64,000 bases of DNA from Mesostigma viride. Its lineage: Eukaryota > Streptophyta > Mesostigmatophyceae > Mesostigmatales > Mesostigmataceae. The number at the start of each line of letters is the position of its first letter. The stretch's first letter is position 1. Where the stretch lies: the NCBI GenBank assembly GCA_009746045.1, contig RPFO01000253.1:2120888-2184887 (forward strand), read 5' to 3'. The notes under the pieces were generated by a model. It did not search any database, was not told the DNA's origin, and saw only the letters and a program-made list of their open reading frames with translations. Below, one piece after another: positions 3,578 through 50,405 of the stretch. Both the position numbers and the translations under genes were made by a program.

Positions 3578-3671
3578 ATGTCTAAAATATTGATTATCTG
3601 CACGAGCGCAGCATCGATGGCTGGCCCGGATCAGGCCGGGGCCTGGAGTGAGGAGATTACCGCGCCATACT
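3578..3671 (+). CDS. DJ-1-like exon 1, 5' part
   Basis: It starts at an ATG in context GCAACATGT. The N-terminus has the typical first beta strand (KILIICTS) followed by the WSEEITAPY segment that carries the conserved Glu of the family. It stops abruptly in the codon after TAC, where the Ty3/gypsy LTR begins. The last five bases, ATACT, are the target-site copy. Confidence 0.88.
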
Positions 3672-4337
3672 TGTTACGGCCCAGACCTTTGTATGGGCGT
3701 AACAATGCCTTCAATAAATAAGTCGAAAGTCATTTGTTATTCGTTTGGGACTTTCGATAGCTCGCTTTCATAGTCCGCCGGACTATAGGACTCAATTCGG
3801 GACTTATTTGGGAATTTGTCCTAAGTTCGGGACTTTGTGTGTTTATTTGATACTTTGTGTGTTCCGGACCAGTTATTTTGGGCCTAGCCAGAAGTACGAG
3901 ATCTTCTAGGGGCCGGGCCGGCCCTAGACGTCATCCAGAACCTATTGGGGCTTGACGGCAGTATCTGGAAGATCGGCGCGCATGTCGGCGCGCCTGCACA
4001 CCAACTTGCCAGCTTGGTAGCGCAGCTAGGTGAAATTGGTCTGTGGACGATGGACTCTCTCTCTTTGGTTTGATGATTAATGAAACGAGTGTTGACGACT
4101 CTCTCAGACCAAGGGGCACTATCCGGATGCCATTTGCCTCATGACATGCCGTGTTATATAGCTAGATTAATTAATCATGCTATAAGGCCTAGCTGAGGAC
4201 AAACCGCTGCTCAGTTAGTCAATTTACTGCGATCTTTGCTTGCTATCGCGGTACGCGGATGCGCGGCTATGCCGGCTTATTAAACTGCACCTTATACTAG
4301 ATTAGATCTTTCGCACCGTCCGGCACAGGACGTAACA
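3672..4337 (+). repeat. 5' LTR of the Ty3/gypsy element
   Basis: 666 bp, TGTTAC...GTAACA, nearly identical to 15588-16254. Confidence 0.95.
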
Positions 4338-4338
4338 C

Positions 4339-4355
4339 TGGATCGGAGGTAGTTC
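4339..4355 (+). promoter_or_regulatory. Candidate primer-binding site
   Basis: Begins TGGATCGGAGG one base after the 5' LTR, the right place for a tRNA 3'-end complement. The tRNA was not identified. Confidence 0.4.
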
Positions 4356-5049
4356 TAGAGGTTTTCCACAGGTGCTCGCGAAGAGCCCTTGTGTTTAAGC
4401 CGCTAGGTGCATTCTTAATAGCGCAGGGCCTGCGCTGGACCGGCCCAATATTTAGTGAGATAGAAAGCCGAGTTCGACCCGCCAGCCTGGGCAGCTGGCT
4501 GTGGTGAAAGGCGGCATCGTCTAGCTGAAAGGGCGGTCATAGTGTAGGGCTTAGAAGCATCACCTGTCGACTGGGCACCGACGGGGAGCTCGGCTCTGCA
4601 CCACTACAAGGAATCGGCGCCACAAGCTAGGGAGGAAAGTCGGCTGCGCAACGCCAAGGTACGTTTTGTCATGCAGTATGTGGTAGTAGCTTGCAGCCAA
4701 CCGCTTTGCTCCGACTCTCTTACCTGCAACGCGTAGGATGTGCGCCCATCCTTGTTGTTTTGTTTGTGAATTTGTCGTTTCTGTGACGTATTGTGACTAG
4801 CGTCCTGGCTGCGAAAGCTGTGGGCGCTGGTAGGGTGGTTTCCGTGGCTTCGTCCTTGCGAAAAGGCGGGCAGTTATCACGGAGGCTACCCTCTTGTATG
4901 GAATTAGGGGCGCGAAGCTCCTGATTTCTGTGATAGTGATTAGATTAGAGCCAGTTGGCATCCCACCCCTGTGACAGGTCACACACTAGAGGTAAAAAGG
5001 TTCCTTTCTCTTTTCTATCTCTGTCTGCTGGCAATAGACAACGTGTGTG
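4356..5049 (+). other. Untranslated leader of the Ty3/gypsy element
   Basis: About 700 bp between LTR and first ORF. I see no gene. It probably carries packaging signals; none can be pinned down from sequence alone. Confidence 0.5.
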
Positions 5050-5472
5050 ATGGCTAATAGTAATAATAGAAATAATAATAGATATAATAATGGACTTGGG
5101 GGTTGGGATAGTGATGTATCTAGGCAACTTTACTATGCTGTGGCACATGATGGAGGCACAGGGAAAGTAGGTATTTTCTATAGCTGGGTAGACTGCAAGA
5201 ACTATATAGTGGATAGGCATAGGGCTATCTTTAAGGGATTCAAGACAGCATGGGAAGCAGATAGGTTTATCCAGGAATACATGACACGTCCAGTAGGCTT
5301 GCACGTAGAGGCACCACCTCAGGAGATTAGGACTCGCCCAATGCCTAGGGGCCGTAGCTGTGCACCCAATAGTGCAACAGTAGAGAGCAGGACGGGGGAC
5401 ACACAGGCTGTCACAGTCACGTTCAGCCAACTCACTGTCAGCACCCCACCTAGGCAGCCACCTAGTTTCTAG
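5050..5472 (+). CDS. RNase H1 hybrid-binding (viroplasmin-like) domain protein
   Basis: A 140-residue protein. Residues about 27-80 read YYAVAHDGG...VGIFYSWVDCK...FKGFKTAWEADRFI. This matches the small domain at the N-terminus of RNase H1 that binds RNA:DNA hybrids and dsRNA, also found in the caulimovirus inclusion-body protein: aromatic-rich start, G-I-F-x-S-W, then F-K-(S/T)-x-x-E-A. The N-terminus is Asn-rich and the C-terminus Pro/Thr-rich and probably unstructured. It lies alone in front of gag in another frame. A role in nucleoprotein assembly or reverse transcription is inference. Confidence 0.7.
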   Translation: MANSNNRNNNRYNNGLGGWDSDVSRQLYYAVAHDGGTGKVGIFYSWVDCKNYIVDRHRAIFKGFKTAWEADRFIQEYMTRPVGLHVEAPPQEIRTRPMPRGRSCAPNSATVESRTGDTQAVTVTFSQLTVSTPPRQPPSF

Positions 5473-5696
5473 AGGAGTAGAGTACTAATTATAGCTTACT
5501 ATATAATAGCTACATTAGCAGTATAACGTAGGGCAGTCGCTTGGTTGATTGCTTGTGGGCATGTGCATGGCATTTTCCTCCTTCTTCCTCTCTCCTTCCT
5601 TCCTTCTCTTGTGGATGTGGTACTGGTAAACATGCCGCGGGGTAAAAAGAAGATACGCGGCACGCTAGGAGTCATTCCGAGGAGGGCGGTGTAGAC

Positions 5697-7808
5697 TTGG
5701 ATAGGCAGGGCAGCCCAGAGTACCAAGTACAGGAGGTATCACAACAGGGCTCGTCCTACCAGCAAGGCAGTCCTATAGGTCACCCAGGTGAGCTGGCTAG
5801 TACCTCCCGTGAGCCGCGAAGGCCACGAGGAGCGGATAGGATGGATAATAGCGAGGAATACCAGCCGCAGCGAATGCAGGCTGAGTATAACCAGCTGATG
5901 GAACGGGCAGGTGATGAGACCCGGCCCAGATCGAATCCCACGAGTGCAGCCCAGCACCAGTCAGTGCAGCCGCAGCAACGCCCGCCCGGGCAGCCGCAGC
6001 AGCACCCAGTGCAGTCCCCACAGCAGCATTCGGAACAGCAACAGCCGTTGTCGCAGCAGTGGCAGCAGCATCCAGTACAGCAGCAGCAGCCACCGCCGCC
6101 GCAGCAGCAACAGTGGCAGCAGCAGCCAGTACAGCAGCAGCAGCCACCGCCGCCGCCGCAGCAACAGTGGCAGCAGCCGCAGCAGCTTCCGCCGTTGCAG
6201 CAGCAGCAGCAGCCGCTAAGCCAGCCGACCGGGTCGCAGATGTATGGTCCGCTTAGTCAGAACGCGACCTATTATCACGCGCAACGTGCCCAACGATTAC
6301 AACATCCCTGGGCGAGCGGTCGACGGGTTTCTTTTGGCAGTGACCTGCAGTCCAATGCGACATCGCTGTGGACCCAGGACGAGGCTAGGGTTCCACCGCC
6401 GGTATACGATGAGGCTGGGCCCGCGTCGTCCCATCCGGCGCGCAATGTCCCAGCAGCCGGACCTGCGCGGCCGAGCGTGTCGCATGGCAATAACCTCAAC
6501 TTGAGTCGCATGGCACCCAGTGATCCTGGCTACGCGCATCCCTCGTCTGTCTGGCTACAACGCAGCGCGACTAGGTCAGCGCCTGCATCGGCAGATGACT
6601 CGTTGTCGATCTTTAATGTTCCGCCGTATCGCGCAGTGGGCGGACCTCGGGCCGACGCGTTTAAGGCGCCGCCCATGCCTGACTTTAAACCAGTGCCCAA
6701 GCTGCGCGCGACTATGAACCCTCGCGAGATCGACGAATGGACGCGTATGTGGGTACAGATCTACTGGGCGTGGTGCAACCACAATGGGTGGGAGCTAGCT
6801 ACCGAGGTTCTTATCTCCTACGTCGTCACCAACTGCATGGATCCCTCAGTGGTCGGCATACTCAACTGTGAGAGTGTCGCGTCGCGCTTGTACCCTCGCA
6901 CAGTAGAGGAGCTACTAGAGCGCATTGAGCGCAAGCTGGTGCCCCCTGACTGGAAGCTCCACGAGCGTCTGGCTTTTGCCAAGCTACGCCAAGGCACCAC
7001 ACCGTTCCGCGAGTTTCTGACAGAGTTTGAAGCATTCTCGGCTCGCCTTGAGGACTTGACCTGGACCGAATATAGGTCGCGGTTCATTGAGGCGCTGAGT
7101 CCGGAGCTCCTAGATGAGGTGCTAAAGCGCTTTGCTGAGATACCGTGGGAGCAGTGGGATGTGATCGAGATCCAGCAGTACCTTCTAAAGGTGTCAGATG
7201 TGCTCGCACGCCGCCGCGCAGCGGTCACCTATCGGCATGCTGGTGCTGCACCGCGTCGCGTCCACTTCACTACGGTGGACCAAGATGGGTCCTCTGAGGA
7301 CATTATCGACCACGAGCAGGAGGACGGCGAGTATGAAGCGCCCCAGGTCAATGCAATCGATGCGTCCAAGGCGCGATGCTTCCGGTGCGGCGAGGTCGGT
7401 CATCTCAAGAAGGACTGCACGCGACCACCACGGGATCGCGATCGTGGCGACGAGCAGACGTCACCCCGTTTCTCCGGGCCTGCCTTCGGTAAGCGCCCGG
7501 AACAAGCACGGCGCCCAGACCGGCCTCGCAACGCGGGCGAGCGCGCAGCCAAGTTGCAGGACGCCCGGCAGCGTCCCACGCAGCACCAGACGCCCCGCGC
7601 TACGGGTCCTTCGTTCCAGCGGGTGAACCGCGAGTTGAATGAGTTGTTCTCACAGCAACAGGACTCGGGTAATGGCGCCTCGGGGGTTATGGATGGCAAG
7701 GCGGTCGCCGGCTATGGGCATGGCGACGAGGAGGATGAGGTAGAGGGGGAAGAGTGGACCGGGCGGTCGAACGAGGCGGTCTCCCGGCCCTCCGTTCCTC
7801 GTGCGTAG
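5697..7808 (+). CDS. Gag polyprotein of the Ty3/gypsy element
   Basis: About 700 residues. The frame has no ATG before 5841. An ATG at 5632 opens MPRGKKK in the neighbouring frame and would join this one by a single-base shift near 5675, so the true start is probably 5632. A Gln/Pro-rich segment (about residues 75-185) precedes a retrotransposon capsid domain (about 320-510) and a zinc knuckle, CFRCGEVGHLKKDC (C-x2-C-x4-H-x4-C). It overlaps pol by up to 70 nt, pol being in the -1 frame; no classic slippery heptamer is visible. Confidence 0.88.
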   Translation: MDRQGSPEYQVQEVSQQGSSYQQGSPIGHPGELASTSREPRRPRGADRMDNSEEYQPQRMQAEYNQLMERAGDETRPRSNPTSAAQHQSVQPQQRPPGQPQQHPVQSPQQHSEQQQPLSQQWQQHPVQQQQPPPPQQQQWQQQPVQQQQPPPPPQQQWQQPQQLPPLQQQQQPLSQPTGSQMYGPLSQNATYYHAQRAQRLQHPWASGRRVSFGSDLQSNATSLWTQDEARVPPPVYDEAGPASSHPARNVPAAGPARPSVSHGNNLNLSRMAPSDPGYAHPSSVWLQRSATRSAPASADDSLSIFNVPPYRAVGGPRADAFKAPPMPDFKPVPKLRATMNPREIDEWTRMWVQIYWAWCNHNGWELATEVLISYVVTNCMDPSVVGILNCESVASRLYPRTVEELLERIERKLVPPDWKLHERLAFAKLRQGTTPFREFLTEFEAFSARLEDLTWTEYRSRFIEALSPELLDEVLKRFAEIPWEQWDVIEIQQYLLKVSDVLARRRAAVTYRHAGAAPRRVHFTTVDQDGSSEDIIDHEQEDGEYEAPQVNAIDASKARCFRCGEVGHLKKDCTRPPRDRDRGDEQTSPRFSGPAFGKRPEQARRPDRPRNAGERAAKLQDARQRPTQHQTPRATGPSFQRVNRELNELFSQQQDSGNGASGVMDGKAVAGYGHGDEEDEVEGEEWTGRSNEAVSRPSVPRA

Positions 7809-10547
7809 TGTCCCTGCCTACACGGATAGAGGTAGATGTAGGACAGGTAGATAAGATAGCGCAAGTCAATAACGTCGGGCAGATAGACAGCTTAGATAAG
7901 GACACCCCGTTGGTAGCGAATACCAGCGTGGGCGCAGAATCAGTCGTTACAGTAGATAGTCGCACCCCGCTTGTAGCGAATACAAGTGCGGATGCATCCT
8001 TGGGCGAGACTTCTGCTCCAAACACGCAGCCGGCCACGGGTAGCGCAGCGAGCTCCGACCAGCCTACGCGCGCAACTCCGGCTGGTACCCGCAACTTGCT
8101 CCTGTTTAGGGGAGGTCTGGCTGTACCGGGATCAGCATTAGACCCCTACCTCAAGGACAAGACCGTCATGGACGTGCAGTTCATGGTGGACACGGGTGCG
8201 TCTACGTCGTTCATCAACGAGGCATTGGCGCGTCGCGCAGGATACGACATCCGGCCACATGCGACAGTGGTGAATGTGACCTATTCAGATGGTCGCAAGA
8301 GCCCCTCGCCTGGTCGGGTTGATATCAAGGCTGTGATTCAAGGCATCCCTGTGGAGCTCACAGCCACGGTCGCACCGCTGGGAGCTGCCGACATCATCAT
8401 CGGCATCGACTGGCTGGACGCGCAGGATGTGGACATTAGCATTCGGCGTCGCGTGGTGTGGTTCCCTGACGGTTCCTTTTGGAGCCCTGTCAGCGAATAC
8501 CAAGTGCAGGGCCCCGACGTGCATAACATCACGCACGAGCGGGAAGTCACCCAGCCCCGCAACGCCTCGCAGATCCTCATGAGCCTCAAGTCACTGGAGA
8601 GTAAGCTGCGTCGAGGCAAGGAGTACTACATGTACCGTCTTGACCTCTCCAACATAGAGGTTCTCCTTAATGAGATCGGCGTGGGGTTTACACCCGAGGA
8701 GACGGAGCGTTATAACGCGGTTCTAGCGCGACGGGAGAAGCTCTTTGACGAAAGCAAGCAGGAGTTTCCCCCGCACCGCTCAGTGCTCCACCGCATCCAG
8801 GTGAAGGAGGGCTATGGTCCCACGTCCTCCCCCATGTACCGCATGGGTCCAGTTGAGCTGGTGGAGCTGAAGAAGATCTTGATGGCGCTCTTGGAGCGGG
8901 GTCTCATCGAGCCTAGCAATAGCCCCTTCTCGGCTGGTGTGCTACTGGTCCCTAAGCCTGGGGGCAAGTGGCGGCTCGTCACGGACTACCGGAAGCTCAA
9001 TGCTATCACGGTAAAGTCCAAGTACCCCCTTCCGCGCATCGACGATATCTTCAACCGCGTCCAAGGAGCCACGTGCTTTACAGTCCTAGACTGCGCGGAT
9101 GGCTTCTGGCAGCTTCGCATCGCCCCGGAGGATTGTCACAAGACGGCGTTCAACACGCCCTTTGGGCATTACCAGTTTCGGGTGGCCGCGATGGGTTTGT
9201 GCAATTCCCCCGCGAGCTTCCAGATGCTCATGAACGACATCCTCCGCCCTGTCATGGGAACCGCGCATCTTCCGCAGGTTTCCCGTGACCTCAAGGACCC
9301 CAACAGGGGCGTGAAGCCCCCGTGGTCCTACAAGCGCACATGCGCTCTCGCGTACCTGGACGACATCCTCGTGTACTCCAAGACTTTCGAGGATCACTTA
9401 GAGGACGTCGACACAGTGTTGCGCATTATGGAAGAGGAGCATCTTTCGGTCCGCAAGGCCAAGGTCCGCGCTGGACGCAGCGTGCCCTTTTTGGGTCACA
9501 CCCTCTCTGCCGCTGGCGTCGCGACGGACCCCGCCAAGATTGCTTCCATCCAACAGTGGCCGACCCCGACCGACGTCAAGGGTGTGCGCAGCTTTTTGGG
9601 TATCGCGTCATACTACCGACGCTTTATCCCCGCTTCGCGACAATAGCTGCCCCCATCAACGCCCTCCTCAAGAAGGGTGTTCCCTTTGTCTGGTCGGAAC
9701 CGTGCCAGCAGGCCTTCGAGGCCCTCAAGCACAGCTTGACCACAGCACCCGTGCTCGCTATCCCGGATCCGTCAAGGCCCTTGTGGTGGCCACGGACGCG
9801 AGCAAGGTTGCGATTGGCGGCGTCCTCCTGCAGGACCAGGGTCAGGGGTTACAGCCGGTTGAGTATATCTCCCGCACCATGATCCCCGCCGAGCGTAACT
9901 ACCCGGTGCATCAGCAGGAGCTTCTTGCTGTGGTCTACTGCTGTCACACTTGGCGCCATCATCTTCTCGGGGCTCAGTTTGACGTTGCGATTAGCGAGCA
10001 GGGGGACCTTGATCCCCACCGGCTGATCATCCACACGGACCATCGGCCCCTCACGCATCTGCTCGCCCAACCTAACTTGACGCCCCGTCAGGCGCGGTGG
10101 ATGGAGTACTTGTCTCAGTTTGCCCCTTTCAAAATTCAGTACGTGAAGGGTGCAGAGAATGTGGTCCCGGACGCCCTTTCTCGGCGGGCGGACTACGCAG
10201 ATTTTTATGAGACTATGGACGTACTTCACACCACATGTGGCTCCGCGCAGGAGCCTGGCTCGCCTTGTGGCGACCCAGGGTCGCCGCACAGTCGCTATCT
10301 GTTCCACACCGGTCGCACGACCCAGGACGACCTGTCTCCCGACTGGGAGGCCGCGCGCGAGGACGTGCGCGCCCCCGGGGAAAGGGAGGGGTCCCGGTCA
10401 CGAGTGCCACTCAGCCACGTGGTACCGGCTCAGGGAATTTTTCACCTGCAGCGCATCGGGCCCCCTACCATTTTTTCGGAGTACGTGCACCAAACCCTTG
10501 AGGAGGAGGCGGACACGTACACGATCACTCTGTCCTGGAGACGTTGA
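7739..10547 (+). CDS. Pol part 1: protease, reverse transcriptase, RNase H
   Basis: The frame opens at 7739. An aspartic protease carries DTGAS (about 8189). Reverse transcriptase follows with the LVTDYRKLN block and the YLDD catalytic motif (about 9353); a ~30-residue insert lies just before the YLDD strand. RNase H (about 9780-10240) has TDASKVAIGG, QQELLAVV and the HTDHRPL motif. Two single-base shifts break the frame, near 9630 (a C run) and near 9775, each consistent with loss of one base. Confidence 0.88.
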
Positions 10548-12046
10548 TTAGCCGGTTCACTGTCACGGAGCCCGCGGCCTTAGAGGCAATCAGGTCGCAC
10601 CCCAAGCAGATGGGCAAGCTCCCGTGCAAGTTCCAGGACGGGCGACTCTATGTCATGGTGAGGCCAGACTGCTGGCGCCTGTACGTCCCGGAGTTATGTC
10701 GAGCGGCTCTGCTCCATGAGCTCCATGACTCTCTCGCCGGTGGCCACCAAGGGATCCACCGCTTGCTGCCACGGGCCAGAAAGAACTTCTATTGGCCAGG
10801 CATGCGAGAGTACATTGAGACGTACGTGCGCGAGTGTCCATCATGTCAGATCATGAAGTCCCGCAATACGGGCTCACAGGCGGTCCCCCAGACCCTACCA
10901 GACCCGATGGGCCCTTGGGATTCCCTGATGATGGATTTTGTTGGCCCCTTCCGGAAGACCAAGAATGGCAACAGCATGATTCTGGTTTTCCTGGACCGTT
11001 TGACGCGCATGTGTCACCTGGCACCATGTCCGGCCGAACTCACGGCCGAGGCTTGCGCTAAGCTATACCTTCACCACGTGTTCAGGTACCACGGACTCAG
11101 CCGGCAATTCATATCGGACCGAGACAAGCTGTTCACGGCCCGCTTCTGGCAGGAGTTCTTTGAATGCCTGGGCACCAAGGTGTCGCTGGGGACAGCATAT
11201 CACAGCTCGTCCTCCCACCTGGTGGAGAGGCTGAACCGCACAGTGCAAGAGACCATGCGCCACTACACCGACGCGGTGGGAAGCAACTGGGAAGAGTTCT
11301 TGGGTTTGGTGGAGTTCTCCCTGAATAACGCCCCCCAGGCAGCTCATGGCTTCACACCATTCTTCCTCAACACGGGCAGGCATCCGCTCACGCCGACTGA
11401 CCTTCTCACAAGCCCAGCCTTAGCTGAAAAGTCGGTCCGGCGAGACACCCTCGAAGGGGTGGAGCGGCTGCTGGTCCAGATGCGCCAGGCCCATGACAGT
11501 GCGGTCAAGGGCTACCGGGCCGCCGCAGAGCGCTACATGGCGAGGACTGCTGGCCGCCTAGATGCGCGCACGCCGGCCATCGAGGTGGGCGACTGGGTAC
11601 TGGTGGAGGGCCCCCGCCTAGGACGTTTCTCTGAGAAGGTAGAGGGTGAGCTCAAGACAAAGCTCCGTCCTATGTTCCTGGGGCCACACAAGGTTCTGGA
11701 GAAGCTTGGAGATGTGATGTTCAAGGTGGACATCCCGAGCTCCTGGAACACTTCCTCCAACTTCCATCGAGACCAGCTCAAGTTATACCACCAGAACTCC
11801 ATCCAAGGTCGGCTCAACCCGCCGGCCCCTGTCGAGTACAACCCCGAGACTGGAGAACAGGAAGACGAGGTGGCCGAGATCGTGGACCACCGGGACATCA
11901 AGCGTGGGAGAGGTAGACAGCGACAGTATCGCGTACGGTGGCGTTTTGCTCAGCATGATTACGAGGATTCGTGGCGAACCGAGAATGAGCTAGAAGGGTG
12001 TGAACGTCTGCTTCGCGAGTATAAGGCCAAGCATGCCCTCCACTAG
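10544..12046 (+). CDS. Pol part 2: integrase with C-terminal chromodomain
   Basis: Separated from RNase H by a third single-base shift near 10540. An HHCC zinc-binding module ends ECPSCQ; the catalytic core shows MMDFVGPF, ISDRDKLF and the Glu in LVERLNRT as the D, D, E residues. After a GPHKVLEKLG-type region the last 60 residues form a chromodomain (VAEIVDHRDIKRG...YRVRWRF...SWRTENEL), which marks chromoviruses and is thought to direct insertion to modified histones. The stop is at 12044-12046. Confidence 0.9.
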   Translation: MISRFTVTEPAALEAIRSHPKQMGKLPCKFQDGRLYVMVRPDCWRLYVPELCRAALLHELHDSLAGGHQGIHRLLPRARKNFYWPGMREYIETYVRECPSCQIMKSRNTGSQAVPQTLPDPMGPWDSLMMDFVGPFRKTKNGNSMILVFLDRLTRMCHLAPCPAELTAEACAKLYLHHVFRYHGLSRQFISDRDKLFTARFWQEFFECLGTKVSLGTAYHSSSSHLVERLNRTVQETMRHYTDAVGSNWEEFLGLVEFSLNNAPQAAHGFTPFFLNTGRHPLTPTDLLTSPALAEKSVRRDTLEGVERLLVQMRQAHDSAVKGYRAAAERYMARTAGRLDARTPAIEVGDWVLVEGPRLGRFSEKVEGELKTKLRPMFLGPHKVLEKLGDVMFKVDIPSSWNTSSNFHRDQLKLYHQNSIQGRLNPPAPVEYNPETGEQEDEVAEIVDHRDIKRGRGRQRQYRVRWRFAQHDYEDSWRTENELEGCERLLREYKAKHALH

Positions 12047-12242
12047 GCTACCGCGAAGGTAGTAGTGGTGGGGGCGCCATGACAACGGGCTTGATCACGT
12101 GTAGCCAGGATGCCGCGAAGGCACTTGTGTTATTCACGTCGATGTGTACGCACCATCGTGGTAATTGGGTATAAGAGCCTAGTATCAAGTGTACCCCTTT
12201 TTCACACTCACACGCCTTGAGTCGAGTGTGCGATGATCGCAG
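12047..12242 (+). other. Spacer between pol and the extra ORF
   Basis: About 200 bp without recognisable coding. It may hold a signal for making the downstream ORF, but none is identifiable. Confidence 0.4.
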
Positions 12243-12368
12243 ATGCTTCCACAGCAGCCCGACAGCGAGGAGCCAGGGATATCGTTGTTCGCTGACAACG
12301 TTGACTTGCGGATGGACATGGACATGAACGTCCCGCAGCCATTGGCGGAGCCTAAGACTCCTGACCAA

Positions 12369-13409
12369 AGTTATTATAAATAGTGACGGAACCTTTTTGC
12401 CACTTGGGCAATTAGGTCCGTCACTATTTATCCGGCGAAAACCACTCGCCGGCATCTATTCCGCGTTAAGTTCACGTGAACGTGGCGCGGAATTGATGCC
12501 GGCGAGTGGTTTTCGCCGGATAAATAGTGACGGACCTAATTGCCCAAGTGGCAAAAAGGTTCCGTCACTATTTATAATAACTAAAACGTCGTAGTGTGGG
12601 GGCCGATATCTATCGTACCGCTAATGCCTACTGCAGTATCGAATCTCGCCTTAACGATATTCCAACCGGGCATTTTTTCCCTTCTGGCACTTTCGTTTGG
12701 CCTTCTGGTATCAATTCCTTCCGGTATTCGGAAATACCCGTGTCACCACAGGGATTCGAACCCCCGACTTACGAGGTCTTAGTTATTATAAATAGTGACG
12801 GAACCTTTTTGCCACTTGGGCAATTAGGTCCGTCACTATTTATCCGGCGAAAACCACTCGCCGGCATCTATTCCGCGTTAAGTTCACGTGAACTGCACGC
12901 GGAATTGATGCCGGCGAGTGGTTTTCGCCGGATAAATAGTGACGGACCTAATTGCCCAAGTGGCAAAAAGGTTCCGTCACTATTTATAATAACTAAGACC
13001 TCGTAAGTCGGGGGTTCGAATCCCTGTGGTGACACGGGTATTTCCGAATACCGGAAGGAATTGATACCAGAAGGCCAAACGAAAGTGCCAGAAGGGAAAA
13101 AATGCCCGGTTGGAATATCGTTAAGGCGAGATTCGATACTGCAGTAGGCATTAGCGGTACGATAGATATCGGCCCCCACACTACGACGTTTTAGTTATTA
13201 TAAATAGTGACGGAACCTTTTTTGCCACTTGGCAATTAGGTCCGTCACTATTTATCCGGCGAAAACCACTCGCCGGCATCAATTCCGCGCCACGTTCCGT
13301 ACGTGAACTTAACGCGGAATAGATGCCGGCGAGTGGTTTTCGCCGGATAAATAGTGACGGACCTAATTGCCAAGTGGCAAAAAAGGTTCCGTCACTATTT
13401 ATAATAACT
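12369..13409. mobile_element. Compound palindromic element, H-S-H-S'-H
   Basis: Three palindromes H (12369-12582, 12781-12994, 13193-13409) separated by a 198-bp spacer S (12583-12780) and its reverse complement (12995-13192), so the whole is one ~1-kb palindrome centred near 12888. It begins AGTTATTATAAAT and ends ATTTATAATAACT, with a perfect 5-bp duplication ACCAA at 12364-12368 and 13410-13414. Each H arm contains smaller hairpins: a 13-bp stem starting AAATAGTGACGG, a TTGCC/GGCAA stem, and CCGGCGA/TCGCCGG closing the loop AAACCAC. There is no open frame of its own. A foldback DNA transposon or palindromic-LTR mini-element are alternatives. Confidence 0.9.
12952..13023 (+). promoter_or_regulatory. 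tRNA-like A and B boxes (Pol III type) in the palindromic element
   Basis: TTGCCCAAGTGG (12952-12963) resembles an A box of the Leu/Ser tRNA kind. GGTTCGAATCC (13013-13023) is a perfect B box. Starts are 61 bp apart, within the tRNA range. Mirror copies lie on the - strand on the other side of the centre. A T run in the outer H arm, about 250 bp on, could end transcription. Confidence 0.5.
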
Positions 13410-14641
13410 ACCAACGCCAGGTGCAAACAGGGCCGACTCGGCGAACGGGCGGTTCTGTCACACCTGCGGTGACACCGATCCAACAACGGGACGGTGATGC
13501 CGTGCGAACCATTCGGACCCAGGGAACGGGGGGGATGACGGTTCTTGTCGGGACGGGACCGGCCCGGCGAACAGGCGGCTCAACCGACCTGACCAAGCTC
13601 GTTTCCGAGGTTGTTGAGCGCAACCAGAAACGGCCCCAGGTGGAACCGGATGCCCAGCGAAAAGTTAGACGTCGCGCATGTACGAACGAGGTGTCGGCGG
13701 GCAGCGTCTCCGCGGATTCCCAGAGTCCGCGCCGAGAGGCTCGAACTTACTCCGAGCGGGTGGCCCGCGTGGAGGCGTCCCGCGCCCATCTACCAGAGAG
13801 GCGTGGCCCGATACCAGCGGTGAGCTTTATATCTCCCTCGCAGGGGTCGTTGATCGTACAGCCGGCGCCATGGACGGTGGGCGCTTACGTCAGTGCGTTT
13901 CCCGGCCCACAACGAGTACGCCCCTTACGCGAGTTTCGGGGTGTTCCCGTCTACATTGAACTCCCACCACCGCCGTTCGTGGCCGTCGACAGCGCGGACT
14001 ATCATCGACCGCAACCGCTGCACTTTGAGGCAGGAACTCATGCGTATGTGGAGCGGGGCTCCATGCGCGAGCTAGTCTGCTTCGACTTGCACCCAGGGAG
14101 GGCGGCCCCGCGACCCCAGGACTGCCTCGAATCGACGCCAGAGGGTTCTGGTACGCGTTACGGCCCCAAGCGGGAGCTGCCAAAATACATGGTAGATGGT
14201 AAACCTCGAAAGGTTGACTGTCCCAAGTATGCTCCGTGCGAGGGAGAGGCATTCCTCGACTGGGTTGTGCCCAACTTTGTGAGGGCTCCGGGCTTTCGCT
14301 TCAACGCTCTCCATGTGCGCGTCGTAGTGTTGACCATGGCGGGGGGTTTCTTTGCGGAGCATGGATGTGGGGTTATTGATTGGAACGCGGGCACAATCAT
14401 GTTCACGCACCCGCAATACCTGGCCGCATTCATGTCGTACTGGCCCACCGGGACGTGGGTAGACCTCGCTCAAACGCGCACCAACGTGAACGAATACCAG
14501 CTCGCATACAATGCGGATCACCTCGCTAACCCCGGGAAGATCCTCGAGGAAATTGGTGAGCAGGGTCGCCAGGTACTCCACGAGTATCGTCAACGGAAGG
14601 CGCGGGCGGGAGGGGTGGGCCCTAGCATTGGAGGAATGTGA

Positions 14642-15573
14642 GGGTCGCGACCTCCTCATGGACAGTCTTGCAGACGGGATGACGAGTTCAGCGCTTGCGC
14701 GCGCATCTCCGCACAGGCAAGACGTGATTCAGCTTGGTGGTCCTCCCTGCAACGACCGCATTGGATAGTTAGGCACGCGAGCACCTCCCGTAGTCGCTGA
14801 TGACGACTGCCGTGATCCATATTTTGGCTTTTGCTCGGCGGTGGCGTTTACAACGCTGTCACATGCTGGCGCGTGCGCGCCCCGCGGATCACTGTTGCGC
14901 ACCCCAACTGTTGCGTGCCCGCCACTGTGCATGGTCGCGCGCAACCTGTCTGCCACGCGCGATTATTATCCCAGTTGTGATAAGCACCGTCGCCTGCAAC
15001 CATACATCCGGTAGTATTGGTATCGGTCGACCCCATCAATTGGGTTAATTGTCTTGCATGGCGTTGATTGGTGTGCGCCTCTGTTTCGGGTCGCTGGCGG
15101 AATTTTATATGCTGCCGCGGCCCTGCACTAGCGCGGTCGCCAGGGAGGGCAGCGGTGAGAGGGAAATTAATTGATGGATTTGTGGGAAGTGGGGGGATAT
15201 CCAGGAAGGATTATGGGGGTTCCTGTTCCTGCTGTTCCAGTCCAGAGATCCAGAGTCCATTCACATTGCCCTCATGAATTGCAACGGGATGGCGACAGCA
15301 TCCCATCGGCTATCAAGGAATTGTCCTTGTGTGGCAACGCCGGGGAGAATTGGCTTTACTAACCCGCTGGCGAACAGGGGTTGGGACATAGTATCCCCAT
15401 GGCCGATTTTGTACTATTATTCTCTATAGCTGACTGCCCGGCCTGGGCAGTTGTCGCTTTTGTGTGTTGCTTGTTTTGCTTGCAAGAGCTTCTTTTTTTT
15501 TCTTGTTTGTTTGTTTGTGTTAATTGTCTTGTTGCGTGCGCCCCAAGCCTGGACGATATAGCTATCGTCCCCT
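14642..15573 (+). other. 3' non-coding part of the Ty3/gypsy element
   Basis: No gene recognised between the extra ORF and the polypurine tract. A hydrophobic open frame at 15381-15689 runs into the LTR and is probably chance. Confidence 0.6.
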
Positions 15574-15587
15574 GGGGAAGGGAGGAG
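15574..15587 (+). promoter_or_regulatory. Polypurine tract
   Basis: GGGGAAGGGAGGAG abuts the 3' LTR and is the expected plus-strand primer of this element. Confidence 0.9.
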
Positions 15588-16254
15588 TGTTACGGCCCAG
15601 ACCTTTGTATGGGCGTAACAATGCCTTCAATAAATAAGTCGAAAGTCATTTGTTATTCGTTTGGGACTTTCGATAGCTCGCTTTCATAGTCCGCCGGACT
15701 ATAGGACTCAATTCGGGACTTATTTGGGAAATTGTCCAAAGTTCGGGACTTTGTGTGTTTATTTGATACTTTGTGTGTTCCGGACCAGTTATTTTGGGCC
15801 TAGCCAGAAGTACGAGATCTTCTAGGGGCCGGGCCGGCCCTAGACGTCATCCAGAACCTATTGGGGCTTGACGGCAGTATCTGGAAGATCGGCGCGCATG
15901 TCGGCGCGCCTGCACACCAACTTGCCAGCTTGGTAGCGCAGCTAGGTGAAATTGGTCTGTGGACGATGGACTCTCTCTCTTTGGTTTGATGATTAATGAA
16001 ACGAGTGTTGACGACTCTCTCAGACCAAGGGGCACTATTCCGGATGCCATTTGCCTCATGACATGCCGTGTTATATAGCTAGATTAATTAATCAGGCTAT
16101 AAGGCCTAGCTGAGGACAAACCGCTACTCAGTTAGTCAATTTACTGCGATCTTTGCTTGCTATCGCGGTACGCGGATGCGCGGCTATGCCGGCTTATTAA
16201 ACTGCACCTTATACTAGATTAGATCTTTCGCACCGTCCGGCACAGGACGTAACA
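15588..16254 (+). repeat. 3' LTR of the Ty3/gypsy element
   Basis: 667 bp. It is preceded directly by the polypurine tract and followed by the ATACT target copy. Confidence 0.95.
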
Positions 16255-16270: not shown

Positions 16271-16376
16271 GTAAGAGCAATGCGTAGCTGCAACGAGGTC
16301 GTGCGTCTCCGCTAGGAGGATTCCGACCTGCCGCGCAGCTCTTTAATTGTAGTGGCACCCACACCTACTTGGTCCC

Positions 16377-17120
16377 TGTCAAATATCTAGCGATGTTTCT
16401 CTACTTTTGTCACGCATTATGTTATCACGCATTATATGCGGGGAAAATTGACGCCGTCAGCTAGGTGTTTATTTACACGACTTGTTGTTGGGTTTGCATC
16501 CCTATTAATTGCACCCACAGGTCGTTGACTAGTTTAATATCATATACAATGTTTGAGTGTACTAAAATCCGAATGATGTTGCTCGGAAAACAGCAAGCGT
16601 TACCTGTCAGCACCGTTACAGGTGCCGTAATTTACATCGGCTCTCTCCGGATCAGATCAGGTCCGCAGTTTGTGGTGCCGCCCTGGAGGCGATAGGACTT
16701 TGAGCCTATCAGACCACACACACAATGTACCATGATGTGGACAATAGATTACAGGCTGCAAAGTCGTTATTATCTAGTGTTCTTTCCGTGGTTGTAGAGA
16801 CGCTAAGCTGCAGTGCCGTCAGATGTAAATCAACGGTGCATAATGCATTAGCCGCCACTACTTTGTGTTCCTAGAGTTGTTTGCTTGCCTAGCCGTGTGT
16901 GGCCCCGACCCAGTGTTGGTCGTGTGACCCTGCCCAGTGTTGGCATTGTCATTTGCCCTGGCCCAGTGTTGGCTATGGTAGACTGCGCCCAGTGTTGGCC
17001 GCACCGTGTTTTCCACTCTCAGTAAACGTATTTTAATACAAGAAGTCTTTTCCATACACTTGTGCAATATCTGGGTCATAACAGGCAAAAGATCTTTCCT
17101 CCGAGCCCCGGTTTCTGACA
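16377..17120 (+). repeat. 5' LTR of the TR-GAG element
   Basis: 744 bp. It contains four spaced copies of CCAGTGTTGG near its 3' third (about 16909-17003). Confidence 0.93.
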
Positions 17121-38593: not shown

Positions 38594-41500
38594 ATGGAAA
38601 ATAGCAGAGAGAGTCGTAGATTAAGGATAGAAAGAAGAAGACAATCACGACAACATCTAGAAATAAACCAACTGTTACGGGAGAGACAAAATAGATTTAG
38701 TCGGCAACGTGTGCAGCGACATCAACAAAACGTACAAAGACAACAGAGACGAAGGTTAGTTGTTGCTATGATCTTCATCAAGCGACTCATATTATCTTGC
38801 TCAACTCATATTATCTTCCTCATCAAATGACGAACTTTTTGCGGCTTTTGTAGGGAGCGTCAGTTAGAAATCGCGAGTTTCAAAGACGCCGAACCCTTTT
38901 TTCAGAGTCCTTTGTTTGAAAAATCGCTTGACGTCTTATCTTACTCGAATGATGCCTGTTATTACAGGCAGCATCAATTAGAAATTGCGAGGAGAAACGA
39001 AGAAGACGAAGACTTTCTCAGCGAGCGCCACTTGGAGATCACGAGGAGAAACGACGAAGGGGAAGAACTTCTGAGGTGAGATTATGTTTTCTGTAAAGTC
39101 CGAGTCTTCTTTTTCGTATGACAACGCTTTTCATCCTTAGCATGTGATGCGGAGCTTACGCTTTTCATGCTTTTCATGGCAGTTATGTGGAATTTTTTTG
39201 TCTTTTCATATTGCATTAATGAGTACTTTTGTTTTCGCAGACATCAACGAGACGAAGCGAATCGACAGCGTCAAGGACGGAGAAGAGTATCTCAAAGGTG
39301 AAAATTTATCTGAATTCATTGGTTAAGATGGATTGTTTTGGCATGACAAAAGCCTAGTATGGTATTAGAATTGTTTCCATCCAAGTCCAAGTCTTCTTTT
39401 TTAGTTGGCTTCGTATCCACTAGGACATCTGTTACTTTGTCGAGCTGCGGAAGCTATGGCGAAATTTTCTTCTTACTTCGCCATAGCAGCCTGCGGAAGC
39501 TATGGCAAAATTTTCTTGACTATGTTATCATGTGTATTCTGATCAATATGTTATCATGTGTATGTTTCTTCTTCTCGACATGATTTATAGACATTAATTT
39601 TAATTAAAGTCCAAGTCAAGAGGAACCGTTTCTCTGCTGACTTGATTTTATTGCGACAAGACTTTTTTAGTTGGCTTCGTATCCACTATGACATCTGTTA
39701 CTTTGTCGAGCTACGGAAGCTATGCAAAATTTTCTTCTTACTTTGTTTAGCAGCGGAAGCTATGGCAAAATTTTCTTGACTATGTTATCGTGCGTATGTT
39801 TCTTCTTCTCAACATGATTTATAAACATTAATTTATTGAAAGTCCAAGTCTTCTTTGACCTCATCATCACATTGTTTCTTCTTTTTATATGTTTCATTAG
39901 ATTGTTGACAAAATTTTCTTTTTACTCCATCAAGCTGCGGAAGCTATGGCGAAATTTTCTTGACCTCATCATCACATATGTGTTTCTTTTTCTTGACATT
40001 AAGATGGATTGTTTTGGCATGACAAAAGCCTAGTATGGTATTAGAATTGTTTCCATCCAAGTCCAAGTCTTCTTTTTTAGTTGGCTTCGTATCCACTAGG
40101 ACATCTATTACTTTGTCGAGCTACGGGAGCTATGGCGAAATTTTCTTCTTACTTCGCCATAGCAGCCTGCGGAAGCTATGGCAAAATTTTCTTGACTATG
40201 TTATCATGTGTATTCTGATCAATATGTTATCATGTGTATGTTTCTTCTTCTCGACATGATTTATAGACATTAATTTTAATTAAAGTCCAAGTCAAGAGGA
40301 ACCGTTTCTCTGCTGACTTGATTTTATTGCGACAAGACTTTTTTAGTTGGCTTCGTATCCACTATGACATCTGCGGTAGCTACGGAAGCTATGCAAAATT
40401 TTCTTCTTACTTTGTTGAGCAGCGGAAGCTATGGCAAAATTTTCTTGACTATGTTATCGTGCGTATGTTTCTTCTTCTCAACATGATTTATAAACATTAA
40501 TTTATTGAAAGTCCAAGTCTTCTTTGACCTCATCATCACATTGTTTCTTCTTTTTATATGTTTCATTAGATTGTTGACAAAATTTTCTTTTTACTCCATC
40601 AAGCTGCGGAAGCTATGGCAAAATTTTCTTGACCTCATCATCACATATGTGTTTCTTTTTCTTGACATCATTAAACATTAATTTAAAGTCCAAGTCTTCT
40701 TTTTCGTTAGTATGTGCTGACTCACAAACGTGATTGTATTGCATGTTGATGATCGTGTTAACGATGACTGCAGGCACGGCAGGGTACAGGGGGCGGAGGA
40801 CGAGATCGCCGATGTCATTCGGCGAGTCACGTCATTGGCCAGGGCGGATGGAGAGACGGTGACATCATATTTGAGGAGGAGGGACGCCGAGTTGATGGTC
40901 GCACGCGACGCGATAGCGCAGTGGAGATTGCGGCATGGCCAGATCGCGGTCCTCTGGCGACCGAATCCATGCACGCACTGCGGCATCCGACTGATGCACG
41001 AAGAGCCTGAGAGTCTCTGTTGCGGCCGAGGGAGACACGTGGTCCCCGCCGTCAGGTTGTCGCAGGACGCCGAGCGCGTCGTGTCGCGATTTTTCCCGAG
41101 CGTAGCGTCGGACGACGAGTCGCAGGCGTAGCGTCGCGTGTCCAATATCGCGAACAACTTGACCGCGGTGTCCTCGATGGCGCTGCATTGGAGCCATTGG
41201 GAACACGCGCGGAGTGCGACACATAACGTCGTGCTATTGGGTCGGGCGTACCACATCATCAGAGCTGCGTCCGAGCCGACCTCGGGCCCGCACCGCTGGA
41301 TCATGCACGACTCGGACCGAGACTCGGCACGCCAAGACCAAGCACTGGGCGGCGAAGCCCGCGGTGGCGAGTGGGAGCAGCTCATACGCAGGCACCCGGA
41401 CGCGCTGCGCGACCTGAGGCGCGACCTGGCGCGTTCGAATCGCGTCGTGCAGACGTATCGACCAGCGCAAGGGGGCGAGCAGCTACGCGATCGCGTCAGC

Positions 41501-42942
41501 CAAGCTGTCCCTTTTCGCGTGCACGTCGTTGGAGAGCGCGAGCGGGTCGACGACGACGAGATCGGCGTCGTTCGACTACTGTACGACGTCACCACGGGGA
41601 GCGAGCGGCAAGAAGAGGTCAGGACATTCCTACTACAACACGTCGCGGAAGACAGGCCGACGCGCGTCAGCGTGTTGAGCCCACTGCACGAGCTCGCTCA
41701 GTACCCGATCCTCTTTCCGGACGGGTTGGAGGAACAGGCGTGGAGCCCGGAACGAGGAACGACGGTGAGTCGATGGGCTCGCGGGGGCATCTTGCGAGCC
41801 GGATTTCAGACGCAGATGGGACGGCTGTCGCAGGCCTTCGCCTGCGAGAACTTTACCAGGGTGGACGATGCCCACATCGATTTCGAGAGACGGAGGACGC
41901 ACGGTGCAGCTGGCGAGACGTATTTGTCGCATTCGTTCGTCGGCGGCCCAGCCTGGTATCGCGCGCATCTGGACGATCGTTGGGCGTCTGCAGCGGTAGC
42001 ACCGGCGGCGGACGGCCGCACTTCTTCATCACGCTGACCGCGAACCCGAACTGGCCGGAGATCAGGGCAGAACTCCTCGAGGGCATGACCGCGGCAGACC
42101 GGTTCGACATGGTGTGCCGAATCTTCAATGCCCGACTGCGACGAGTCAGGCCGATATTGCGACAGGTCTTCTGCGGGAACCAGGAGCCGGACACGTGGAT
42201 CGAGGTGATCCAGTTCCAACACGGCGGGCTGCCGCACGTACACATCGTGTTCTCGCGCTCGAGCGACCCGGCGACGCCGCCGCTCACATACGCCGAGATC
42301 GACCGACTCATAACGGCCGAGGCGCCCGACGATCCGGAACTGCGCGAACTGATGCGCCGCTACCAGGTGCACCACCACTCGGACCGATGCCTGGGCCAGA
42401 CGGGGACGTGCGTGTGGGGGTACCCGATGCCGATTGCGCCGCAGACGACGGTGAACGAGAACGGGCGAGTCGTGTACCGTCGTCGACGCCCCGAGTACGC
42501 CCTGCTCGTGCCCACGCAGCTCGTCATATTGAGAGCGCGGGGCGGCCACGTCTGCGCCGAGGTGCTCGGGTCGATAGGCGTCTACGAGTACCTGCTCGAG
42601 TACCTGCTACCCTCGGGGCGCATCGACGACACGGTCCTGATGAGTCTCGGCATCAACCCGAGCGACCACGGGCTCCTGTTCGCGATGAGCCGACGCATCG
42701 GCAGCATGCAGGGGTGCTGGCGAATCCTGGGAGGGCATACGTTCCCGCTCGTCACGATACAGCCGTCCGTCTTGCGGCTGTCGTTCCTGGTCCCGATGGA
42801 GCAGGGCGAGGCGAGGCGCGTCGACGACGACGAGTACTGGTCGACGCGAGGCGCGATCGAGCACGACGCCGTTTTCGCGAGAGATAAAAATTATGTTGCT
42901 TACCGATCATCGACCATGCCAAAGAGAGAAAATCGTTCTTGA
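38594..42942 (+). pseudogene. Helitron Rep-like gene, spliced, no helicase
   Basis: Exons 38594-38754, 38968-39075, 39241-39297 and 40774 onward join in phase 2 each time, each junction making Arg from AG plus one base. The first three code Arg/Gln/His-rich sequence like Helitron N-termini. The large exon has a Cys cluster (PCTHCGIRL...CCGRGRH), then FFITLTANPNWPEI and the HUH nickase motif GGLPHVHIVF (about 42230) and a YEYLLEYL segment that could supply tyrosines. A TAG at 41129 and a one-base shift near 42000 break the frame. No helicase follows 42942. Confidence 0.75.
39325..40673 (+). repeat. 676-bp tandem duplication inside a Helitron intron
   Basis: Copy 1 39325-40000 and copy 2 40001-40673 start AAGATGGATTGTTTTGGC and are near-identical. 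Both contain repeated GCGGAAGCTATGGC(A/G)AAATT phrases. Confidence 0.88.
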
Positions 42943-48560: not shown

Positions 48561-48874
48561 GGGTTCTAACCCCACCCCCATGCACCATATTCTGATCAGG
48601 CACTCCGCAAAGGTGAAAACCGTTTGCGTTCAGGGCCATGCACCATATAACAATAACAATGTTGTCATACAAATCTGCAAGAACTACCATATTTGCACTT
48701 GATTGATTTAATTTCCAGCGTATTATCGGTTGCACACAGATCAAGTGTCCCTACGCCATGAGCAAACGTGCAGAATAGGTAGCATGCCCCATAGGAGTAA
48801 TAGGGACATGTATGTATAACATATGTAGGAGTATGACACATAGAGCCCATATGTGCGTAGCCACTACATTCAGG

Positions 48875-49105
48875 AAGGTGGGACACATAGAAACATACAG
48901 TTAGGTGGGACACAGCTTCAAGTTCGGGTAGGTGAGACAGGCCTGTATCACAAATGCCGGTAGGTGGGACACCATGTTTTTCCAAATTCAACAAGGTGGG
49001 ACATAATTTCAGTTAGGTGGGACACCTGAACATGTCCCGCTTTGCTGAATTTGTCCCACCTACCGGAGTTGGAACACTGTCCCACCTACGTGAGCTGCCC
49101 CTGTA
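48875..49105. repeat. GTGGGACA array, right side of intron 3 insertions
   Basis: Motifs GGTGGGACA and TGTCCCACC at 20-35 bp spacing. The last 27 bp (49079-49105) are the exact reverse complement of 34950-34976. Confidence 0.65.
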
Positions 49106-49622
49106 CGACGGCCCTATTGCAGCTCCTCGCATGGTGGGGTACGTATATTTAAGGGCCACATGCCCAACAGCCCATGTATTTAGAACCATACAGCAGGCTG
49201 CTGCCTTGTTTGTACATCATGATTCGATCCTTATTATTCTTAAGATGGGTCTTCTTATGTAGAGGGCTGTGCTGCATCATGGCCGGCGTGCCCGCCCCAC
49301 GGCTTCACAAGCTAGGAAACCCGGCCCTTCCCGGCCCATCCAAAGCACCCGCTGGGAAACCCCCCATGCGGCAACATGTGAATCTGACCTTACTATGTAG
49401 ACGTCCACTGATTGAGCTTATTGATGGCGTGCCGCGTGGCCCTTTGCCGTCGCTACTCAAGGAGGCAGGCTGCCTTCGTAGTTTTTGGCTTGGTGGTGTC
49501 TGGGATACTCTTGATGAATCGAGCTCAAAATCTGACATCCGCCCAATGCCGCATTTCTGCATCCTCGCATCATACATTTGCTGCGACGGTGATCTACGAA
49601 TGCCCCCACTCGATCCCTGCAG
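49106..49622 (+). other. Right end of intron 3
   Basis: No gene. Ends with the acceptor CCCTGCAG. Confidence 0.6.
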
Positions 49623-49739
49623 GTGGTGGGCGCGGTCTGCCACGGCCCCTGCGACCTCGTCAACGCCAAGAACGAGAAAGGGGAGCCGCTGGTCAAGGGC
49701 AAGAACGTGACGGGGTTCAGCAACCAGGAAGAGGAGCAG
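49623..49739 (+). CDS. DJ-1-like exon 4 with the Cys-His elbow
   Basis: 39 codons, phase 0 at both ends. VVGAVCHGPCDLVNA carries the nucleophilic Cys and following His. KGKNVTGFSNQEEEQ matches the family G-K-x-V-T-x-F-x-x-x-E-E segment. Donor GTGATG. The exon end and donor are repeated downstream. Confidence 0.93.
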
Positions 49740-49955
49740 GTGATGTGTATAGAGGAAGAGGGAAAGAACATGATGGGGTTCAGCAACCAGGAAGAGGAGC
49801 AGGTGACGTGTATACAGGAAGAGGGCAATCTTGAACGTGACGGGGTTCAGCAACCAGGAAGAGGAGGAGCAGGTGACGTGTATACAGGAAGAGGACAATC
49901 TTGAACGTGACGGGGTTCAGCAACCAGGAAGAGGAGCAGGTGACGTGTATAAACA
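49704..49955 (+). repeat. Minisatellite made of the exon 4 end plus its donor
   Basis: Four copies starting at 49704, 49767, 49834 and 49904 (period 63-70). Each has TTCAGCAACCAGGAAGAGG...CAG followed by GTGA(T/C)GTGTAT. The first is the true exon end. Confidence 0.92.
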
Positions 49956-50189
49956 GACACAGAAGGCATCTATTGGCGTCTCAGTATTGATGAATACTTG
50001 CTTCATACCAATAATATAATGAAATCAAAATATTGGAAAGCAAGCCTTGGTCGCATTTTTGGAAAGCAAATATATTGCTTCCATGTTAGCAAATATATTG
50101 CTCTTGTGGGGCCAGTGGCTCAGGTCTAAATGACCTAACTTCTGAATCCTCGTAGCTCCTTGTTGATCTGTGTATTGCTTAAATTGCAG

Positions 50190-50405
50190 GTGGGCCTCCA
50201 GGACAAGGTCCCCTTCCTCCTGGAGACAAAACTCAGGCAGCTGGGTGGCAAGTACGCGTGCGCATCTGCGTGGGAGTCCCACGCGGTGGCCGATGGGACT
50301 CTGGTCACAGGGCAGAATCCCGCGTCATCCAAAAGGGTGGCGATCCTTATACTGTCTACTTGCAAGGCAGAAAAGCGTGGTGACAACGTGCACGGTGACC
50401 AATAA
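50190..50405 (+). CDS. DJ-1-like exon 5 and stop
   Basis: 71 codons and TAA. It follows the acceptor AAATTGCAG. It reads VGLQDKVPFLLETKLRQLGG then DGTLVTGQNPASSKRVA, the C-terminal signature of Hsp31-type members. The last 15 residues (TCKAEKRGDNVHGDQ) are not conserved in the family as I know it. Confidence 0.93.
   Translation: MGLQDKVPFLLETKLRQLGGKYACASAWESHAVADGTLVTGQNPASSKRVAILILSTCKAEKRGDNVHGDQ

What the first reader, a model, noticed from the sequence alone, without database searches (positions are those of the whole stretch)
3578..50405. A 235-codon DJ-1/PfpI gene spread over 47 kb of nested transposons
Seven short coding segments scattered across the window join into a full-length Hsp31-like protein, with GT-AG introns all in phase 0, the conserved Glu, the AVCHGP elbow and the TGQNPAS tail. 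A simple ORF scan misses it because no exon exceeds 72 codons and two are cut by LTR elements.
Basis: partly seen in the sequence, partly recalled or inferred. Interest (0 to 1): 0.9.

Follow-up and report, generated by a model that had tools for sequence, protein, structure and literature searches.

The report
Algal glyoxalase-like gene split by retrotransposons
A five-exon glyoxalase/DJ-1-type gene, likely of the green alga Mesostigma, is present over 47 kb with every exon still readable, but two retrotransposons sit inside its coding exons, so this copy is predicted to make no working protein.

Summary
Seven segments (3578-50405) join into 235 codons plus stop: five exons, four phase-0 GT-AG introns. 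The product is in the DJ-1/PfpI family (Pfam 59.9 bits, cut-off 26.6), Hsp31/glyoxalase-3-like. The nearest relative found is a Mesostigma viride gene model (70% identical) that lacks exactly our exon 3, so two exon borders coincide. Exons 1 and 2 are each cut by an LTR retrotransposon (12.6 and 13.6 kb) with exact 5-bp target duplications; a third LTR element, a Helitron-type ORF and palindromic elements lie in introns or inside element 1. Reading from the ATG stops after 47 codons. No GT/GC-AG splice keeps exon 1b in frame. Exons 2-5 hold no in-frame Met. LTR pairs differ by about 0.5-0.6%, so only about two neutral changes are expected since insertion, and intact exons do not show function. 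I read it as a recently killed gene copy, not a working 47-kb gene. Two exon ends with their splice donors are duplicated into the next introns, an oddity left open. No RNA data; the own genome could not be searched.

The parts
3578..3671 (+). exon 1a of the DJ-1/GLX3-like gene (ATG, 31 codons + 1 nt)
   Evidence: tblastn hit by 81 of 120 homologues
3672..16254 (+). element 1: Ty3/Gypsy-type LTR retrotransposon with chromodomain, inserted in exon 1; LTRs 3672-4337 and 15588-16254 (4 substitutions, 1 gap column); target duplication ATACT at 3667-3671 and 16255-16259
   Evidence: gag zinc knuckle, protease, RT, RNase H, integrase and chromodomain
12369..13410 (.). palindromic element nested in element 1, beginning AGTTATTATAAA, apparent duplication ACCAA
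16260..16270 (+). exon 1b (11 nt), followed by donor GTAAGA
   Evidence: in-frame TAA at 16250-16252 and no AG between it and the exon end
16271..19873 (+). intron 1 (3603 nt), acceptor preceded by a GGGC/GGGT repeat instead of a pyrimidine tract
16377..19141 (+). element 3: short LTR element in intron 1, identical LTRs 16377-17120 and 18398-19141, one gag-like ORF (read by eye), target duplication GTCCC
19874..19966 (+). exon 2a (31 codons)
19967..33588 (-). element 2: LTR retrotransposon, likely Copia type, antisense to the gene, inserted in exon 2; LTRs 19967-20342 and 33213-33588 (2 substitutions); ends AG..CT; target duplication ACAGC at 19962-19966 and 33589-33593
   Evidence: RVT_2 and rve hits below Pfam's cut-offs
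33594..33608 (+). exon 2b (5 codons)
33609..33980 (+). intron 2 (372 nt)
33981..34142 (+). exon 3 (54 codons, GGHG motif); absent as a block from the Mesvir1 model P0003
34143..49622 (+). intron 3 (15480 nt) with a duplicate of the exon-3 end, a Helitron-type ORF, a palindromic element and satellites
41227..42939 (+). Helitron_like_N ORF in intron 3
   Evidence: E=5.9e-16
49623..49739 (+). exon 4 (39 codons, nucleophile Cys131 in AVCHGP)
49740..50189 (+). intron 4 (450 nt) holding three further copies of the exon-4 end with its donor, within the array 49703-49951
50190..50405 (+). exon 5 (71 codons + stop, TGQNPAS motif)

Best explanation
This is a real five-exon DJ-1/PfpI (Hsp31 or glyoxalase-3-like) nuclear gene, likely of Mesostigma viride or a close relative, whose first two exons have each been cut by an LTR retrotransposon, so that this copy likely no longer makes the enzyme. 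Shown: the family, exon structure, target duplications, LTR pairs, the stop codons met on reading into either element, and the lack of an in-frame GT/GC-AG splice that keeps exon 1b. Inferred: the pre-mRNA would terminate or be read into the element, giving at most a peptide of 47 residues (31 native, 16 from the LTR). Exons 2-5 have no in-frame start codon of their own, so no shorter enzyme would be made either. Both insertions are likely recent, and the gene was likely under selection until then. A related copy (P0003, 70% identical) would cover the function if it sits in the same genome.
For: Family: Pfam PF01965 59.9 bits; best solved relatives 4p5p (E=4.6e-46) and, among yeast chains, Hsp31 4qyx (E=4.8e-25). 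Gene reality: five of the seven pieces found by splice-free tblastn; all 21 invariant columns and 39 of 41 columns at least 95% identical in 117 homologues kept, among them Glu26, Cys131, His132 and Glu162. Insertions: exact 5-bp duplications and LTR pairs. Break: stop 47 codons after the ATG and 49 codons after the start of exon 2; 0 in-frame GT/GC-AG options for element 1; in-frame TAA at 16250-16252 with no AG between it and the end of exon 1b; Met only at residues 1 and 14. Youth: 4/666, 2/376 and 0/744 LTR differences, about 2 neutral changes expected in the coding sequence since elements 1 and 2. Former selection: end branch 0.25, against 0.26 for P0003. Organism: P0003 and the two best of 7 integrase relatives are Mesvir1 models.
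Against: No RNA data were available, so silence is inferred. No frameshift or stop lies in any exon piece. Seven GC dinucleotides in phase 0 lie between 3580 and 3718; two of them, after residue 28 and in the LTR after codon 43, could in principle join exon 2 in frame with residues lost or replaced. GC-AG removal of an exonic retroelement is on record for Arabidopsis CMT1 (PMC6238269). Splices from out-of-phase donors to cryptic acceptors near exons 2-5 were not enumerated. An intact allele cannot be excluded: the own genome was never reached. A second haplotype collapsed in assembly is also untested.
Confidence: 0.85

Rival explanations
1. The gene still works: both exonic elements are removed from the RNA as parts of introns, as reported for Evelknievel in Arabidopsis CMT1.
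For: Every exon piece is open and conserved. All four introns are phase 0. Element 2 has 12 in-frame GT/GC-AG options near its ends, 5 with GT. The CMT1 precedent includes a GC-AG event (PMC6238269). Seven phase-0 GC dinucleotides could serve to skip exon 1b.
Against: Element 1 has no option that keeps exon 1b, and no GT between 3580 and 3718 is in phase 0 without a stop. The closest option for element 2 uses a GC donor and replaces residues. Neither target duplication allows an exact GT/GC-AG removal (read from the borders). Element 1 is sense-oriented with its own LTRs.
Confidence: 0.05
2. The insertions are polymorphic: an uninterrupted allele exists on a homologous chromosome or in other strains, and this assembly shows the disrupted one.
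For: LTR pairs are nearly identical, so the insertions are young. No stop has accumulated in any exon piece.
Against: It concerns the population rather than this copy, and is compatible with the best explanation.
Confidence: 0.4
3. Assembly artefact: unrelated contigs were joined at repeats, and the exons are not in one locus.
For: The locus is repeat-rich, and such regions are prone to chimeric joins.
Against: No N in 64 kb; three LTR elements each with an LTR pair and exact 5-bp duplications; all pieces on one strand, in order and in frame.
Confidence: 0.04
4. Old pseudogene into which transposons later gathered.
For: A G-rich repeat stands where the pyrimidine tract of intron 1 would be, and the C-terminal tail is ten residues longer than that of P0003.
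Against: No frameshift or stop; 39 of 41 near-invariant columns kept; end branch as short as that of P0003.
Confidence: 0.06

Closest known systems
Mesostigma viride gene model P0003 (jgi/Mesvir1/14696)
   Same: Nearest row by tree: 2-row clade, support 100/99; 120 of 171 residues identical; same exon 2/3 and 3/4 borders inferred from the missing block
   Different: The model lacks our exon 3; its DNA and genomic position were not seen
Hsp31/glyoxalase III group (yeast Hsp31 4qyx, Glx3 4lru, bacterial-type 1u9c and 4p5p)
   Same: Near full-length sequence match with Glu-Cys-His and a second Glu conserved
   Different: NCBIfam equivalogs HchA and PfpI are far below their cut-offs (40.5 of 365 and 30.7 of 330 bits); activity untested
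Arabidopsis CMT1 with exonic Evelknievel (PMC6238269, abstract and passages seen)
   Same: Copia-like LTR element inside a coding exon
   Different: There one element, with exact GC-AG removal in about 25% of splicing events; here two elements, and no in-frame splice that keeps exon 1b
Transposon-rich introns of the Mesostigma viride genome (PMC6947507, passages seen)
   Same: 66% repeats, 27.9% LTR elements, mean intron 1142 bp
   Different: Here two elements are in exons. The pseudogene count there used frameshifts and stop codons, a rule that may pass over this copy since its exon pieces carry neither (inference)

Membership tests
DJ-1/PfpI family (PF01965) | Profile score above the curated cut-off | tested here: met
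   59.9 bits, cut-off 26.6
DJ-1/PfpI family (PF01965) | Nucleophile Cys with upstream Glu (role recalled) | tested here: met
   Cys131 and Glu26 invariant in 117 homologues and kept
Hsp31/glyoxalase-3-like branch | Near full-length match to Hsp31-type chains, with His next to the Cys and an acidic third residue | tested here: met
   4qyx residues 5-232 of 245 aligned; His132 and Glu162 kept. That Glu162 matches yeast Glu170 was read from the alignment; the role of Glu170 is recalled
Hsp31/glyoxalase-3-like branch | Glyoxalase or chaperone activity | not testable with these tools
   needs an assay
HchA or PfpI equivalogs of NCBIfam | Score above the curated cut-off | tested here: not met
   40.5 of 365 and 30.7 of 330 bits
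LTR retrotransposon, element 1 (Ty3/Gypsy with chromodomain) | LTR pair, TG..CA ends, 5-bp duplication, gag-PR-RT-RH-INT order, chromodomain | tested here: met
LTR retrotransposon, element 2 (Ty1/Copia) | LTR pair and 5-bp duplication | tested here: met
LTR retrotransposon, element 2 (Ty1/Copia) | RVT_2-type polymerase | tested here: inconclusive
   27.6 bits, below its cut-off of 31.6
LTR retrotransposon, element 2 (Ty1/Copia) | TG..CA ends | tested here: not met
   ends are AG..CT
Exonic retroelement removed by splicing (CMT1/Evelknievel kind) | Donor and acceptor near the element that restore the frame | tested here: not met
   0 options for element 1, 12 for element 2
Working gene | Transcript joining all exons | not testable with these tools
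   no RNA data at hand

The most novel reading that the evidence does not exclude
The locus still yields a complete DJ-1/glyoxalase-3 protein despite two exonic retrotransposons of 12.6 and 13.6 kb, by RNA joining outside the GT/GC-AG rules or by trans-splicing. The duplicated exon-4 end would at the same time offer a second donor that inserts 21 residues right behind the catalytic glutamate.
Probability: 0.03. Interest if true: 0.8.

Novelty: new member of a known kind. Interest (0 to 1): 0.3.

Why it matters
It is a clean example of gene loss caught early: two exonic insertions with target duplications, flanking exons without a single disabling point change. Pseudogene counts that ask for frameshifts or stops within the exons may miss such copies, and gene predictors may report them as fragments or as giant-intron genes. 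The locus gives a ready test of whether exonic LTR elements can be spliced out in an early-branching streptophyte alga.

Tried and rejected
Chance assembly of short ORFs: rejected by splice-free tblastn and by the junctions in 117 homologues. Removal of element 1 by splicing with exon 1b kept: enumerated and rejected. Start inside exons 2-5: rejected, Met only at residues 1 and 14. Creation of intron 4 by duplication of an AGGT segment: set aside, because by eye the start of intron 4 does not resemble exon 5 and its end does not resemble exon 4 (sequence). Flanking host genes: hardly looked for. Of 261 stop-to-stop ORFs of 80 codons or more, 20 went to Pfam, 5 of them right of the gene and none left of it; those 5 matched nothing. 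Paper searches: (2 papers; 4; 1) listed nothing on this gene or on spliced exonic elements in Mesostigma by title and abstract start, and of these only PMC6947507 was opened (passages); led to PMC8170915 (passages; its main text has no occurrence of Mesostigma or intron) and PMC6238269 (abstract and passages). The library holds only PMC papers under open licences. tRNA scan: none. No structure prediction was asked for, since the joined protein is not read letter for letter from one stretch of DNA.
Full report
WHAT IS THERE. The seven pieces sum to 708 nt, 235 codons plus stop, with four GT-AG introns of 3603, 372, 15480 and 450 nt, all in phase 0. The joined product scores 59.9 bits against Pfam DJ-1_PfpI (cut-off 26.6) and 33 bits against ThiJ_like (cut-off 30). 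It matches solved chains 4p5p (E=4.6e-46), 1u9c (E=9.2e-45) and yeast Hsp31 4qyx (E=4.8e-25) over almost their whole length. It is below the curated cut-off of all six NCBIfam models listed, the best being the PfpI subfamily with 46.4 of 139 bits; I therefore name the branch Hsp31/glyoxalase-3-like and not a specific equivalog.

INDEPENDENT CHECK. Exon 5 was hit by 120 queries, exon 4 by 120, exon 3 by 118, exon 1a by 81 and exon 2a by 62. One HSP from one query fell elsewhere (33754-33885, in intron 2), which I take as spurious; exons 1b and 2b are too short to be hit alone. In an alignment with 117 homologues (120 less P0001 and P0008, which carry duplications, and P0003, which lacks an exon) none of the six junctions has an insertion column filled in more than 10% of rows. 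The only gaps near a junction are at the third and fourth residues of exon 3, in 24 and 45 rows. All 21 invariant columns are kept, and 39 of 41 columns that are at least 95% identical; the two departures are residues 20 and 54.

ORGANISM. The nearest relative is P0003, a Mesostigma viride model (Mesvir1): 120 of 171 residues identical, 2-row clade with support 100/99 in a tree of 119 rows (P0001 and P0008 left out). It lacks precisely the 54 codons of exon 3, so its gene is inferred to share the exon 2/3 and 3/4 borders. The two best relatives of the element-1 integrase, of 7 found, are also Mesvir1 models, 61% identical over the whole query and 85% identical over 61% of it. So the window is likely from Mesostigma or close kin. 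At 70% identity P0003 is more likely a paralogue than the same gene in another strain, but this is inference. The published genome of strain NIES-296 has 66% repeats, 27.9% LTR elements, a mean intron length of 1142 bp and a haploid set of five chromosomes (PMC6947507, passages).

THE ELEMENTS. Element 1 (3672-16254, 12583 nt, same strand) carries gag zinc knuckle, protease, reverse transcriptase, RNase H, integrase and chromodomain, TG..CA ends and ATACT duplications. Element 2 (19967-33588, 13622 nt, genes on the opposite strand) has ACAGC duplications, but its ends are AG..CT, and its Copia-type polymerase and integrase hits lie below Pfam's cut-offs. Element 3 (16377-19141, in intron 1) has two identical 744-nt LTRs, GTCCC duplications and one gag-like ORF ('gag-like' is my reading: Pfam gave only a sub-threshold zinc-ribbon hit). 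A palindromic element sits inside element 1, and a relative about 91% identical sits in intron 3. Element 2 contains three stretches 72-81% identical to stretches at 53-62 kb of the window, near which one ORF looks like a LINE polymerase by eye, although Pfam found nothing there. Intron 3 holds a Helitron_like_N ORF.

CONSEQUENCE. Reading from the ATG runs into element 1 and stops after 47 codons; reading exon 2 into element 2 stops after 49. I enumerated GT/GC-AG splices within about 80-100 nt of each element border that keep frame and meet no stop: 0 for element 1, and 12 for element 2, of which 5 use GT. For element 1 the negative does not depend on distance: upstream of exon 1b the frame closes at TAA 16250-16252 and there is no AG between that stop and the end of the exon. 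Leaving exon 1b out and joining exon 1a to exon 2 needs a phase-0 donor: no GT between 3580 and 3718 qualifies, while seven GC dinucleotides do, which leaves a thin route with residues lost or replaced. Out-of-phase donors with cryptic acceptors were not enumerated. Met occurs only at residues 1 and 14, so exons 2-5 offer no start of their own.

AGE AND SELECTION. LTR pairs differ at 4 of 666, 2 of 376 and 0 of 744 sites. For elements 1 and 2 that corresponds to about two neutral changes in the coding sequence since insertion, so the absence of stops says nothing for or against function today. The end branch of the gene (0.25) equals that of P0003 (0.26), which speaks for normal constraint until recently. 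A possible sign of wear: the acceptor of intron 1 is preceded by a GGGC/GGGT repeat instead of pyrimidines.

COMPARISON. A Copia-like element inside exon 13 of Arabidopsis CMT1 is spliced out, one route being GC-AG and restoring the mRNA in about 25% of splicing events (PMC6238269, abstract and passages). Here that route is closed for element 1, except for exon-1b skipping from a GC donor. The case is thus an ordinary kind of event, gene disruption by transposons, in an unusually legible state.

AN ODDITY LEFT OPEN. Two of four exon ends, together with their donors, are repeated in the next intron: exon 3 (score 63, best of 300 shuffles 25) and exon 4 (score 101, best shuffle 27). The ends of exons 1 and 2, tested with shorter queries of 31 and 35 nt, and the four exon starts stay below the best of their shuffles. 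At exon 4 there are four donors with equal consensus match (7 of 9), of which those at 49739 and 49802 keep the frame and those at 49872 and 49939 do not.

LIMITS. No RNA data; the own genome was unreachable in seven tries. The strain of the window, whether the cells carry one or two sets, and any intact allele are unknown.

Noticed in passing
34101-34154 and 34178-34228; 49697-49951: The ends of exons 3 and 4 with their 5' splice sites are duplicated into the following introns (once and three times); the second exon-4 donor keeps frame and would add 21 residues.
   Followed up: partly
P0008 (protein, eukprot): A homologue from another eukaryote has the same stretch (GKKVTGFTNTEE...) three times in the protein, the region that is tandemly repeated in DNA here.
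   Followed up: no
16377-19141: Short LTR element with identical 744-nt LTRs and only a gag-like ORF; likely non-autonomous and very young.
   Followed up: partly
19967-33588: LTR element with AG..CT ends in place of TG..CA; on its strand a protease-like ORF (28198-29052) lies after the integrase ORF (28988-30598), unlike the Copia order (order recalled; the protease is read by eye, no Pfam hit).
   Followed up: no
12369-13410 and 47512-48464: Palindromic elements about 91% alike over most of their length, beginning AGTTATTATAAA and flanked by apparent 5-bp duplications (ACCAA, GTGGG); the first six bases equal those of element 2.
   Followed up: partly
13367-14638: 424-codon ORF without Pfam match between the pol ORFs and the 3' LTR of element 1.
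   Followed up: no
P0003 (Mesvir1 model): The nearest relative lacks exactly one internal exon; whether the model or the gene lost it is unknown.
   Followed up: no
19760-19860: A GGGC/GGGT repeat stands where a pyrimidine tract would be expected before the intron-1 acceptor.
   Followed up: no
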